Assembly (NCBI RefSeq): GCF_000719135.1
Contig: NZ_JOEK01000003.1
Location: forward strand, 186,001-250,000
DNA from: Streptomyces avicenniae
GTDB lineage: Bacteria; Actinomycetota; Actinomycetes; Streptomycetales; Streptomycetaceae
Length of the DNA: 64,000 nucleotides
Direction of reading: 5' to 3'
Part shown: positions 1 to 64,000 of the stretch, piece after piece
Layout of the letters: each line of letters starts with the position of its first letter
How positions within the stretch are numbered: position 1 is the stretch's first letter
Notes under the pieces: model-generated
Told to the model about the DNA's origin: nothing
Database searches by the model: none
Seen by the model: only the letters and a program-made list of their open reading frames with translations
Translations under genes and position numbers: made by a program

Positions 1-512
1 AGGGTGGGCCCGCCGCTCTTCACCTCGTCCTCGGCCCCGTGTCGCGGGGCCGCGCCCGTCAGCGCCTTCTCCAGGTGCCCGCGGGTCCGTTCCGCCCGTG
101 GCCCCGTGCGGGCCGGGGGGCGCGGCGCGGTCGTACCGCCGTGGCCGGGCGGGCCGGTCCTCCGCCCGCGAGGGGGACGCGGTCTCCCGCCGCCTGGCGG
201 CGCGGGCGCCCGCCCCTCCCGTCCCGCGCCACGGCGCCCGGCCGTGGCAGGGCCGTGGTGGGCTGGTGCGGCGGACGGCACGGCGGGACCCCCGGGCGTG
301 AAAAGGCGGTCAGGCAGGGACGTTCACCATGTAACGAGCTGTGGGTAGCGGGTTGTGCGGCGTTCGGTGAACCCGCGATGAACAACGGCGTTCCCCTCGG
401 TTCCGCCGTCCTTCGCCGCGATCCGCTCGCCCGCGCGGGAGTCGTCCGCGTAGCATCGGGGGGATTCCGGTCCGTGGGTGGGGTCCACCCGCCAGGCGCA
501 GGGCAGTTGGTT
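1..512. other. Intergenic/left-edge region without a supported gene
   Basis: Very G+C-rich DNA with open frames on both strands that show no recognisable domain. A TAGCAT hexamer at 451-456 is a plausible -10 box for the downstream membrane-protein gene. An in-frame ATG at 378 could extend that gene, but the added residues look like translated non-coding DNA. Nothing else is supported here. Confidence 0.5.
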
Positions 513-1484
513 GTGGGCATCGAAGGCGAACAGCTCGTACTTGACTATCTCAGCCGCGTCGGCGACCTGGCGCACGGCACCAGCCTGTCGGCCGCGCAGC
601 GCGCCGCCCTGGTGAACCGGCTGCGCGACGACATTCACCGTGCCAGGTCCGCCGCCGGGCCCACGGAGAGCCGCGCGTCGGTGAAGCGCATCCTCGGGCG
701 GATGGGGAGCCCGGAGGACGTGGTCGCGGCAGCGGCGACCACTCCCGCCGCGCCGTCCGCGCCCGCGCCCCAGCCCCCGCCCGCCCGTGCCGCCGCGCCG
801 CGTGCCACGCCGCGTCCGACGCCGCCCGACGGCGCGGGCGTCGAGGGCCCGTCCGTGCCGCTGCCGCCGCAGCGGGGCCCTGGGCCGAGCCGGTCACCGT
901 TCCTGCGACCGGCGCCGCCCGGACGTACCTACTGGCCCGACGGCGACATCGGCCTCTTCAGGGGCGGCATCGAACTCCCCGAGATGCTGCACCCGCCCGC
1001 CGAGCAGGAGGACGAGAAGCCCACGGCGGCCACGGCGGACGAGGCGGCGGCCGAGGAGGCCGTACCGCCCGCCGCCGACGCGCCCGCGCCGGGCGGCGGG
1101 CGGCGCCTGGCGCGCGCGGCGCTGGCCGGGCGGCGGGTCGGCGGCTTCGTCGAGCTGTCCGCCGTGCTGCTCCTCGTCGCCGGTACGGTCGTCGGCTCGA
1201 TCGCGCCCCTGGCCCTCGGCTGGCTGGCGGCCTGGTGGTCGCCGCGCCTCGGCCGCCGCGAGGCGCAGTGGGCCGCCCTCGGCATGCCCGCGCTCGTCGC
1301 CGGGGCGTACGCGCTGTGGCTCGGCGGCAGGAACGGCGGGTACTGGGGCGAGCCGCTGGCGCAGGGCGAGGCGCAGGAGATGCTGGACGGCGACTGGCCG
1401 GTGCTGCTGCGCGTCGCGGCCCTGGCGAGCGCCGCGTTCCTCCTGTACCGGGCCAGGCGCCACGTGCCGCCCGCGGCGTCCTGA
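513..1484 (+). CDS. HAAS-like membrane protein, hypothetical (323 aa)
   Basis: Unrecognised beyond its architecture. Residues 1-65 form a helical domain (GIEGEQLVLDYLSRVGDLA onward, then RVRDD-type helices and a KRILGRMGSPEDVV segment) resembling the HAAS/permease-prefix domain. A Pro/Ala-rich linker of about 120 residues follows, and then about three hydrophobic helices (FVELSAVLLLVAGTVVGSI, the next containing GMPALVAGAYALWLGG, and a last one near the C-terminus). GTG 513 is chosen because the conserved domain begins immediately after it and a TAGCAT -10-like box sits about 60 bp upstream; in-frame ATG 378 is the alternative. HAAS domains often sit on membrane proteins next to transporters or PadR-type regulators. 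Here the neighbour is a TetR/MFS pair, but on a separate promoter. No function is assigned. Confidence 0.75.
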   Translation: MGIEGEQLVLDYLSRVGDLAHGTSLSAAQRAALVNRLRDDIHRARSAAGPTESRASVKRILGRMGSPEDVVAAAATTPAAPSAPAPQPPPARAAAPRATPRPTPPDGAGVEGPSVPLPPQRGPGPSRSPFLRPAPPGRTYWPDGDIGLFRGGIELPEMLHPPAEQEDEKPTAATADEAAAEEAVPPAADAPAPGGGRRLARAALAGRRVGGFVELSAVLLLVAGTVVGSIAPLALGWLAAWWSPRLGRREAQWAALGMPALVAGAYALWLGGRNGGYWGEPLAQGEAQEMLDGDWPVLLRVAALASAAFLLYRARRHVPPAAS

Positions 1485-1490
1485 CGGGTA

Positions 1491-1520
1491 TTGCACCGGC
1501 CGTTCCAGAACGGGTAGCGT
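1491..1520 (+). promoter_or_regulatory. Promoter of the TetR gene, leaderless arrangement
   Basis: TTGCAC (1491-1496), an 18-bp spacer and TAGCGT (1515-1520). The GTG start of the TetR gene lies 7 bp after the -10 box, so transcription would begin at or next to the start codon. No Shine-Dalgarno sequence could fit, which fits the leaderless mRNAs common in Streptomyces. Confidence 0.55.
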
Positions 1521-1527
1521 GCTCCCC

Positions 1528-62558: not shown

Positions 62559-62935
62559 TGGCGCCCGGCAGCTACCCGACGCGTGGCACCGCCCGCCCCG
62601 AGGGCGGGCGCCGCATCGCCAGCGGCTCCGCGCCCGCGCCCATCCGCCAGTGGCCGCTGCTCGCCGTCCTCGGCGTCACGCTGCTCGGGCTGCTCGTCAC
62701 GCTGGCGAACTTCCGCGTCGGCCTGCTCCTCGTCGGCGGCGCGCTGCTCGGCGGCGCGGTGCTGCGCGGCTGGCTCCCGGCGGTGGGGATGCTGGCGGTC
62801 AGGTCGCGCTTCACGGACGTGCTGACGTACGGCGTCCTCGGCGCGCTGATCGTGCTGCTGACGCTGATGGCGGAACCGGCCCCGTGGCTCGAACTGCCCT
62901 TCCTCAACGACCTCCTCCGCTTCTCCGCGGGCTGA
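62558..62935 (+). CDS. DUF3017 membrane protein
   Basis: 125 residues. Three or four hydrophobic helices: WPLLAVLGVTLLGLLVTLAN, FRVGLLLVGGALLGGAVLRG, VLTYGVLGALIVLLTLMAE. DUF3017 proteins follow folD in many actinomycetes; function unknown. ATG 62558 overlaps the folD stop by one base, so it is co-translated. In related Streptomyces malate dehydrogenase comes soon after; here a restriction locus intervenes. Confidence 0.88.
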   Translation: MAPGSYPTRGTARPEGGRRIASGSAPAPIRQWPLLAVLGVTLLGLLVTLANFRVGLLLVGGALLGGAVLRGWLPAVGMLAVRSRFTDVLTYGVLGALIVLLTLMAEPAPWLELPFLNDLLRFSAG

Positions 62936-62979
62936 GTCGGCCTCACCGCTCCCTCCCGCAAGCCGAAGGTGCGCCCCCT

Positions 62980-63930
62980 GTGATCAACGCCGACAAACCG
63001 CAGCGCTGGAACGACGACGTGCGGGCATCCGTGCGGCTCTACAACGCGTGGTTCCTGGCGGCTGCTCCCCAGGCGTACCAGGACACGCGGCTGGTCACGG
63101 TGCACGAGGTGGAACGGGCCTTCGGCTGGACGGCCGACATGACGGCCGTCACCCCCGAGGTGCTGGAGGAGCACCCCGATGTCCTGGCCGCCCTCCGGAT
63201 GAGCACCGCGCCCCCGCTCGCCAGGGACCGCCTCGTCGGCCTCTCGTCCGGGTCGAGGTCGCTGCTGGACTCGATGGAGAAGAGCGGGCGGCTCCCCCCG
63301 AGGATGCGGCGGGAGGTGCTCTCGGGGCACCTCCGGCGCATGTGCGCCGTCCTGAACGACCTGCTGGACCAGGACCTCTTCCCCTGGTCCCGCACGGGCG
63401 GCCCGGTGGACCCGCGGCAGCGCGAGCGCGCCGCCACCGTCGTCGCCGACCGCCTCTGCGGAGCCGTCGCGGACCCGATCGTGCGGAACGCCCAGGAGCA
63501 GCGCCAGTTGGCGCTGATCGAGGAATGGCTGCTCGCCCGCGGGTACAGCAGGAAGGCGCACCCCGCGTCCTTGCCGCTGCGGACCATGCAGCCCGGCACC
63601 TTCTCGTTCCGCCAGATCGTGGTGGTCGGCGACGGCCACCCGGTCAACATCCCCGTCGATGCCGTCATCCAGCCGCACACCCCGCGCCCGCACGGCTTCC
63701 CCGTCCTCATAGAGGCCAAGTCCGCGGGCGACTTCACCAACACCAACAAGCGCCGCAAGGAGGAAGCCGCGAAGATCCACCAGCTCAAGGCGACCTACGG
63801 CGCCGACATCTCGCTCCTCCTCTTCCTCTGCGGATACTTCAACACCGGATATCTCGGGTACTCCGCGGCGGAGGGGCTCGACTGGGTGTGGGAGCACCGC
63901 ATCGACGACCTGGAGGCCGCGGGTGTCTGA
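62980..63930 (+). CDS. Type II restriction endonuclease, SalI/XamI family
   Basis: 316 residues, essentially the length reported for R.SalI of Streptomyces albus G (315). It starts INADKPQRWNDDVRASVRLY and shows the RE_XamI family pattern throughout. Landmarks: TVHEVERAFGWTADMTAVTP, SSGSRSLLDSMEKSGRLPPR, VADRLCGAVADPIVRNAQEQ and RQLALIEEWLLARGYSRKAH. The PD-(D/E)xK-like core is VNIPVDAVIQPHTP followed by PVLIEAKSAGDFTNTNKRRK (Asp then Glu-x-Lys). It ends FNTGYLGYSAAEGLDWVWEH. Predicted to cleave GTCGAC; specificity is inferred from family and from the apparent lack of that site in this window. GTG 62980 lies 44 bp after DUF3017. Overlaps the next gene by eight bases, as in an R-then-M operon. 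Confidence 0.88.
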   Translation: MINADKPQRWNDDVRASVRLYNAWFLAAAPQAYQDTRLVTVHEVERAFGWTADMTAVTPEVLEEHPDVLAALRMSTAPPLARDRLVGLSSGSRSLLDSMEKSGRLPPRMRREVLSGHLRRMCAVLNDLLDQDLFPWSRTGGPVDPRQRERAATVVADRLCGAVADPIVRNAQEQRQLALIEEWLLARGYSRKAHPASLPLRTMQPGTFSFRQIVVVGDGHPVNIPVDAVIQPHTPRPHGFPVLIEAKSAGDFTNTNKRRKEEAAKIHQLKATYGADISLLLFLCGYFNTGYLGYSAAEGLDWVWEHRIDDLEAAGV

Positions 63931-64000
63931 CAGGCTGCGCGAGACCGAGGAGCGGCGGGTCGTCCTCCAACGCGAACTGGACTCGGAACGGACGCAGGCC
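63923..64000 (+). CDS. Start of the partner gene, probable SalI/XamI-type DNA methyltransferase (partial)
   Basis: Only 26 codons are in the window: GTG 63923, MSDRLRETEERRVVLQREL and on, a charged helix likely to be coiled-coil. The frame runs off the right edge. Identification as the methyltransferase rests on position: R.SalI and M.SalI are adjacent in one operon in S. albus G, and a restriction gene needs a protecting methylase. No methylase motif is visible yet. Confidence 0.55.
   Translation, partial: MSDRLRETEERRVVLQRELDSERTQA

What the first reader, a model, noticed from the sequence alone, without database searches (positions are those of the whole stretch)
1..64000. No GTCGAC (SalI) site found anywhere in 64 kb, with codon choice that avoids it
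Reading the plus strand for TCGAC and checking the preceding base, I found over 100 ATCGAC/CTCGAC/TTCGAC and many GTCGAG/GTCGAA/GTCGAT, but no GTCGAC (palindromic, so one strand suffices). At about 73% G+C random expectation is about 20 (0.365^4 x 0.135^2 x 64000). The anagram GACGTC is frequent. In-frame Val-Asp written with GTC uses the rare Asp codon GAT (3641, 3821, 3872, 14201, 19224, 29149, 43441, 55558, 63655); elsewhere Val-Asp is GTG-GAC. A SalI/XamI-type endonuclease gene sits at the right edge. This looks like genome-wide avoidance driven by a resident or long-standing restriction system.
Basis: partly seen in the sequence, partly recalled or inferred. Interest (0 to 1): 0.9.

Follow-up and report, generated by a model that had tools for sequence, protein, structure and literature searches.

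The report
Genome purged of its SalI-type sites
This Streptomyces genome has lost almost every copy of the six-letter DNA word that a restriction enzyme it appears to carry would cut, and most of the few copies left sit in foreign-looking DNA; it is an unusually clean case of a known effect.

Summary
GTCGAC occurs 0 times in the window (40 expected), 0 times in 382 kb around it (283 expected) and 49 times in the 6.48-Mb assembly, where scaling gives about 4,800. Of 295 genomes of the genus (Streptomyces), only this one and one other carry the XamI/SalI endonuclease family; these two have the lowest GTCGAC densities (7.6 and 131 per Mb; lowest non-carrier 455). The other carrier has the genes at another place, so the acquisitions are probably independent. 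Where relatives have GTCGAC in shared DNA of this contig, this genome has none (0 of 32, 0 of 29, 0 of 13), while one-base neighbour words survive in 51 to 57%. 45 of 57 losses are single-base changes and 34 are synonymous, chiefly GTC-GAC to GTG-GAC. So sites were most likely purged in place by selection under a long-resident type II system. 42 of the 49 surviving sites lie in seven clusters of lower-G+C DNA, two with defence-type genes. The kind of effect is published (Rusinov 2015); the completeness is unusual. Other palindromes, such as CTCGAG, are also purged here, for reasons not found.

The parts
1..64000 (.). Window free of GTCGAC
   Evidence: 0 sites against 40.0 expected; part of a 382-kb stretch with 0 against 282.7
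62980..63930 (+). XamI/SalI-type restriction endonuclease gene, 316 aa, GTG start (start chosen by homologues)
   Evidence: PF09572 3.2e-94 on the longer frame 62650-63930; PADLOC REase_II PDLC03552 9e-177; D227, E245, K247 invariant in the 25 homologues aligned
63923..64000 (+). First bases of the partner methyltransferase gene (584 aa, runs on to contig position C3:251677), overlapping the endonuclease stop by 8 bases
   Evidence: L005:3924-5678; PADLOC MTase_II PDLC03328 7.5e-269; PF07669 Eco57I methylase 1.2e-7; NPPY motif seen in the translation
61680..62558 (+). folD, conserved left neighbour
   Evidence: PF02882/PF00763; aligned in G186, G121, G214, G202
62558..62935 (+). DUF3017 gene, last gene before the block with the R-M genes; in the four relatives read, the malate dehydrogenase side follows within about 1 kb
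   Evidence: PF11222; synteny break after C3:248,932 = window 62,932; dehydrogenase PF02866/PF00056 at L168:746-1993
3821..3826 (+). Val-Asp GTC-GAT where relative G186 has GTC-GAC
19224..19229 (+). Val-Asp GTC-GAT where G186 has GTC-GAC
29149..29154 (+). Val-Asp GTC-GAT where G121 has GTC-GAC
43441..43446 (+). Val-Asp GTC-GAT where G186 has GTC-GAC
24496..24501 (+). Val-Asp GTG-GAC where both G186 and G121 have GTC-GAC
47100..47105 (+). Val-Asp GTG-GAC where G186, G121 and G214 all have GTC-GAC

Best explanation
The genome carries a two-gene type II restriction-modification system of the SalI/XamI kind (an endonuclease, and a separate methyltransferase probably of the N6-adenine type), in a block that lies between DUF3017 and the malate dehydrogenase side. 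Whenever methylation of a GTCGAC site lags or fails, the independent endonuclease can cut the host's own chromosome, so each site has a small cost. Over a long residence, selection fixed base changes that destroy the sites, mostly synonymous ones at Val-Asp codon pairs (GTC-GAC to GTG-GAC, less often GTC-GAT). DNA that arrived later still holds its sites. Shown here: genome-wide depletion, its match to gene carriage in the genus sample, loss by point substitution in shared genes, and survival of sites mainly in lower-G+C, foreign-looking DNA. Inferred: GTCGAC specificity, enzyme activity, self-cutting as the cost, and age.
For: Counts: 0 of 40.0, 0 of 282.7 in 382 kb, 49 in 6,478,703 bases. 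Carriage: PF09572 in 2 of 295 genus genomes, the same two that rank lowest for GTCGAC; the chance that two given genomes are the two lowest is 1 in 43,365, relatedness ignored. The two systems sit at different places. A named third Streptomyces carrier, S. zagrosensis, has 772 in 8.7 Mb. Aligned sites: preserved 0 of 32, 0 of 29, 0 of 13, against neighbour words 112 of 196, 102 of 201, 31 of 55; sites shared by two relatives 0 of 13, against 82 of 110 neighbours and 39 of 50 GTGGAC/GTCCAC. Outcome at 57 places: 45 one-base changes; 34 synonymous, 20 not, 3 untyped; 26 to GTG-GAC. GTC makes up 16% of Val codons before Asp, but 72% before Glu, 61% before Asn and 68% before Ala. In the S10 operon, 7 of 8 sites of G186 are gone at 90.6% identity, while 19 of 26 neighbours stay. 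42 of 49 survivors cluster in lower-G+C DNA.
Against: One carrier, Nocardiopsis sp. CC223A, is not depleted (5,865 in 6.9 Mb), and 9 of 50 carriers examined have ratios above 0.78 by a rough expectation, so carriage alone does not suffice; residence time is the inferred reason and was not measured. CTCGAG, CTGCAG, AGGCCT, GCCGGC and GAGCTC are also strongly scarce here and are lost at aligned sites too (GCCGGC 3 of 104 kept against G186), without an enzyme identified for them. The non-carrier G121 shows a mild shortage of its own (ratio 0.58; GTC 31% before Asp against 55-60% otherwise). Two Streptomyces carriers in the sample are few, and the DNA identity of their R-M genes (66.5%) is at the low end of, not outside, the 65-88% range of shared stretches, so independence rests on position. 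Some isolated sites survive in core genes such as those for S19 and S1, which plain purging does not explain.
Confidence: 0.92

Rival explanations
1. A general compositional or anti-palindrome bias of Streptomyces makes GTCGAC rare; the enzyme gene is a bystander.
For: Several palindromes are scarce in this genome, and CTCGAG is scarce in many genus members without a PF04555 gene.
Against: GTCGAC is at 455 per Mb or more in all 293 non-carriers of the 295, and in the three nearest relatives of that sample the observed/expected ratio is 0.58 to 0.77.
Confidence: 0.02
2. Import filter: restriction lets in only site-free DNA, so the genome lost sites by replacement with imported DNA, not by point substitution.
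For: Restriction is a known barrier to entry (general knowledge).
Against: At 57 places where a relative has the site, 45 differ by one base only and 34 are synonymous, mostly inside collinear DNA. The seven clusters that look foreign still hold 42 sites of 63.3 expected.
Confidence: 0.03
3. Mutation bias: methylation of the site makes it mutate faster (as m5C does by deamination), without selection against self-cutting.
For: The GAC to GAT and GTC to ATC outcomes are transitions.
Against: The partner enzyme looks like an N6-adenine type (Eco57I family; NPPY motif), which is not known to deaminate to a stable mutation (recalled). The commonest outcome, 26 of 57, is C to G at the Val wobble position; GTTGAC was seen once and GTCAAC never.
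Confidence: 0.03
4. Sites are avoided because methylation at GTCGAC disturbs gene expression or replication, not because of cutting.
For: Named as a possibility in the Discussion of PMC4687349 (part 1 of 2 read).
Against: Removal is near-total and the typed losses are in coding sequence (54 of 57 places), not only in regulatory DNA.
Confidence: 0.08

Closest known systems
Avoidance of orthodox type II recognition sites in host genomes (Rusinov et al. 2015, PMC4687349; read: abstract, Results part 1 of 3, the section on lifespan, Discussion part 1 of 2)
   Same: Separate endonuclease and methyltransferase, palindromic 6-bp site, under-representation in the host; the paper ties its strength to long residence.
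   Different: Their cut-off is observed/expected of 0.78 or less; here it is 0 of 283 over 382 kb and about 1% genome-wide. The main text does not mention Streptomyces, SalI or GTCGAC.
SalI (SalGI) system of Streptomyces albus G (passages seen in PMC3937824 and PMC4018334)
   Same: Same genus; the endonuclease here belongs to the XamI family. That SalI and XamI both cut GTCGAC is recalled, not from a call.
   Different: In S. albus J1074 the gene is disrupted by IS112 (PMC3937824), and PMC4018334 suggests the system was acquired specifically by a terrestrial S. albus; here it is intact and, by the purge, old. The SalI protein itself was not compared here.
Streptomyces sp. JJ66 (G202) XamI-type system
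   Same: Same family, same genus; depleted for GTCGAC (631 in 4.8 Mb; 4 of 25.8 expected in 60 kb).
   Different: Different chromosomal place, 66.5% DNA identity; purge incomplete.

Membership tests
Orthodox type II R-M system of SalI/XamI kind | XamI-family endonuclease gene, intact | tested here: met
   PF09572 3.2e-94, profile 2-256 of 256; no stops inside; D227, E245, K247 among invariant columns
Orthodox type II R-M system of SalI/XamI kind | Separate, adjacent DNA methyltransferase gene | tested here: met
   L005:3924-5678, PDLC03328 7.5e-269, PF07669 1.2e-7
Orthodox type II R-M system of SalI/XamI kind | Recognition sequence GTCGAC | not testable with these tools
   Inferred from the family name (specificity recalled) and from the carriage-depletion match
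Orthodox type II R-M system of SalI/XamI kind | Cutting and protecting activity | not testable with these tools
   Needs purified enzymes or methylation calling
Recognition-site avoidance by a resident R-M system | Observed/expected of 0.78 or less (threshold of PMC4687349, which uses Karlin's model; Markov model used here) | tested here: met
   0 of 40.0, 0 of 282.7
Recognition-site avoidance by a resident R-M system | Depletion found in carriers, not in relatives without the system | tested here: met
   2 of 295 carry, and these are the two lowest; counter-example outside the genus: Nocardiopsis CC223A carries and is not depleted
Recognition-site avoidance by a resident R-M system | Loss by substitution in DNA shared with relatives | tested here: met
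Recognition-site avoidance by a resident R-M system | Long residence of the system | tested here: inconclusive
   No dating was done; the surrounding 21-kb block has the genome's G+C (0.732) and no sites (0 of 17.4), which fits an old insert
Trace of a lost R-M system (rival class of PMC4687349) | No system for the site in the genome | tested here: not met
   A system of the fitting family is present

The most novel reading that the evidence does not exclude
The purge has gone so far that the core chromosome is nearly immune to its own restriction enzyme. With seven isolated sites outside the seven clusters, loss of the methyltransferase would no longer mean mass cutting, so the system has lost its addictive hold and is kept for defence alone. 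The surviving sites then work as a clock and map of newly arrived DNA, with different resident specificities giving different dates.
Probability: 0.3. Interest if true: 0.6.

Novelty: new member of a known kind. Interest (0 to 1): 0.42.

Why it matters
It is a nearly complete end point of a known process, with internal controls: the same word is near expectation in foreign-looking clusters, gone in old genes, scarce in a second carrier and ordinary in hundreds of relatives. That could allow the per-site cost of carrying a type II enzyme, the age of its arrival and the age of later imports to be estimated from sequence alone, and it raises the question whether a host can evolve out of dependence on its own methyltransferase.

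Tried and rejected
The XhoI family (PF04555) as cause of the CTCGAG scarcity: not found in G000; 18 of 295 carry it, with CTCGAG counts from 117 (G001) to 1,531 (G122), and the two lowest genomes, G156 with 27 and G243 with 42, are not among the carriers, so that family does not explain CTCGAG here. The PvuII family (PF09225) against low CAGCTG counts: 1 of 295 carries it (G150, CAGCTG 196), yet eight others have 183 or fewer, so there is no simple rule there. Flank-based expectation for 50 of the 80 kept XamI loci (I left out 30, most of them on contigs under 30 kb; 538 relatives were found in all): 41 of 50 at or below 0.78, 10 of 50 at or below 0.1, 9 of 50 above 0.78. This is rough, since the expectation comes from at most 17 kb around the gene; JJ66, one of the 50, scored 0.29 there against 0.155 on 60 kb. 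A solved relative of the endonuclease: none at E up to 1. A parA counterpart in 400 kb of G005: only a 70%-identical partial match. Pfam scans of ORFs chosen by length gave no family for all 6 ORFs of L007 and for 2 of the 3 ORFs of L012, for L008:4567-8088, and for 2 of the 10 ORFs of C22; some frames chosen may be wrong ones. One search repeated G000-G051 and added 33 new genomes of the order and class; none of the 85 but G000 has PF09572.

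Full report
What was checked. The window (G000 C3:186001-250000) holds no GTCGAC; a maximal-order Markov model expects 40.0. In 382 kb of the same contig the count is 0 against 282.7. In the whole assembly of 6,478,703 bases it is 49. Scaling the 382-kb expectation gives about 4,800 for the genome, so about 1% remains.

Specificity of the effect. The window alone does not single out GTCGAC: CTCGAG, GAGCTC, CTGCAG and others are scarce too. 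The genus does. In 295 genomes drawn by the tool from a larger group, PF09572 (RE_XamI) is found in G000 and G202 only. GTCGAC per Mb is 7.6 in G000 and 131 in G202; the lowest non-carriers are G010 (455), G121 (511) and G231 (571), and the highest that I worked out is about 1,180. CTCGAG, by contrast, runs from 27 to 4,983 per genome across the same 295. A second draw of 85, of which 33 are new and lie outside the genus, has no further carrier; the lowest new density is about 310 per Mb (G363, 432 in 1.4 Mb). G202 is Streptomyces sp. JJ66 by identical counts and contig length, so the genus is Streptomyces.

The genes. The endonuclease is at 62980-63930, 316 aa. Its invariant D227, E245 and K247 fit a PD-(D/E)XK nuclease (label recalled). 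The methyltransferase follows with an 8-base overlap, almost wholly outside the window. In G186, G121, G214 and G202 the stretch that follows folD-DUF3017 matches G000 C3:283,000-285,000, where malate dehydrogenase lies; it is in opposite orientations in G186/G121 and G214/G202. In G000 these are 34 kb apart. Against G121, the part 270,291-284,983 is inverted and about 21 kb (248,940-270,290) with the R-M genes has no match in the pieces read. That block has G+C 0.732 and 0 GTCGAC of 17.4 expected, which fits an old insert. JJ66 has its copy elsewhere, 66.5% alike, at the low end of the 65 to 88% seen for its other matches to G000. So two acquisitions with two depletions are probable, on position, but not proved.

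How sites were lost. On alignments of 81 to 83% identity, a relative's GTCGAC is preserved in G000 in 0 of 32 (G186), 0 of 29 (G121) and 0 of 13 (G214) cases. Six neighbour words with the same TCGA core are preserved in 112 of 196, 102 of 201 and 31 of 55; the anagram GACGTC in 15 of 30, 18 of 42 and 7 of 16. G202 gave 0 of 3. GTCGAC is not alone at the bottom: GCCGGC is kept in 3 of 104 (G186) and a few other hexamers also reach 0. For sites shared by two relatives, hence probably ancestral, it is 0 of 13 against 82 of 110 neighbours. Over 57 distinct places, 45 changes are of one base; 54 could be typed, 52 of them Val-Asp; 34 are synonymous and 20 not; 26 became GTG-GAC, 6 GTC-GAT and 1 GTT-GAC. 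In G000, GTC makes up 16% of Val codons before Asp but 61 to 72% before Asn, Glu and Ala; in G186 the figures are 47% and 47 to 65%, in G121 31% and 55 to 60%. Even in the S10 operon (90.6% identity to G186), 7 of 8 sites are gone. This reads as removal in place; the preference for a wobble transversion argues for selection and against deamination.

What is left. 42 of the 49 sites lie in seven clusters; about 79 kb taken round these has G+C 0.675 (against 0.734 in the 382 kb) and 42 GTCGAC of 63.3 expected, CTCGAG 24 of 36.7, CTGCAG 27 of 35.9. The cleanest, C1:346.5-358 kb (G+C 0.58, 8 against 5.6 expected), encodes a DruA-like protein and SspF-, SspG- and SspH-like proteins. Contig C22 (16 sites) has TniQ, TniB and a sub-threshold rve match, and a patatin gene next to an E2-ThiF-JAB protein, as in a Tn7-like element with CBASS-like cargo (that reading is mine). 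C20 has an integrase-domain protein. Of the seven isolated sites, two lie in short lower-G+C stretches (L016, no family; L018, AAA_21 ATPase). Five lie in or at genes that look like core genes: ribosomal S19, a four-S1-domain protein (rpsA by my reading), 2-oxoglutarate dehydrogenase, the start of a ParA-type ATPase and an ABC ATPase. The S19 site is conserved in G186. Why those survive is open; codon preference or recombination with relatives could do it.

Other carriers. In the 50 of 80 kept loci that I searched, counts run from 1 in 7.9 Mb (the cyanobacterium of L036) to 5,865 in 6.9 Mb (Nocardiopsis CC223A); S. zagrosensis has 772 in 8.7 Mb. By a rough expectation 41 of 50 are at or below 0.78 and 9 above. 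So carriage and depletion are not the same thing; residence time, as in PMC4687349, is the likely difference, but I did not date any system.

What is known. Avoidance of type II sites in hosts, its dependence on lifespan and its traces after loss are described in PMC4687349, and the removal of sites from genomes is a topic of the review PMC12707154 (passages). Searches on Streptomyces with SalI or site avoidance and on site avoidance in general listed no title or abstract reporting a SalI-site purge in Streptomyces; the library holds open-licence papers only, and I read few of the listed papers. I therefore file this as a new, unusually complete member of a known kind.

Noticed in passing
L006:7993-17812 (G000 C1:347,992-357,811): Low-G+C defence-type island: DruA-like protein followed by SspF-, SspG- and SspH-like (FtsK/HerA ATPase) proteins, with GTCGAC, CTCGAG and CTGCAG at expectation.
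   Followed up: partly
L009 and L010 (G000 contig C22): TniQ, TniB and a weak rve match with a patatin and E2-ThiF-JAB pair: looks like a Tn7-like element carrying a CBASS-like system. The contig could also be a plasmid or contamination.
   Followed up: partly
window 1-64000 and L157-L172: Other strongly purged palindromes in this genome: CTCGAG 8 of 222.7, CTGCAG 3 of 83.2, AGGCCT 7 of 103.2, GCCGGC 108 of 674.1, GAGCTC 24 of 144.2 in 382 kb; no XhoI-family match in G000.
   Followed up: partly
genus sample: CAGCTG is at 105 to 650 in 15 of 295 genomes, against thousands in most others, and CTCGAG is low in many; only one of the 15 (G150) has a PvuII-family match. Palindrome counts look like a record of unknown or past R-M systems.
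   Followed up: partly
L005:3924-5678, residues 531-564: The methyltransferase ends in an Lsr2-type DNA-binding domain match (PF23359, 1.2e-6).
   Followed up: no
L005:5757-12129: After the R-M genes: a PARG-like protein (TIGR02452) and three proteins with papain-fold deamidase domains, two with T7SS signal domains and one with Imm35.
   Followed up: no
L014:3533, L020:3695, L017:3867, L019:3725, L015:3957: Isolated GTCGAC retained in genes for ribosomal S19, an S1-domain protein, 2-oxoglutarate dehydrogenase and an ABC ATPase, and at the start of a ParA-type gene, although the rest of the core is purged.
   Followed up: partly
P0006: A XamI-family protein is listed for Streptomyces sp. GBA 94-10 4N24, while a passage of PMC4018334 says SalI genes were absent from its sponge isolates, GBA 94-10 among them; strain naming or annotation may differ.
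   Followed up: no
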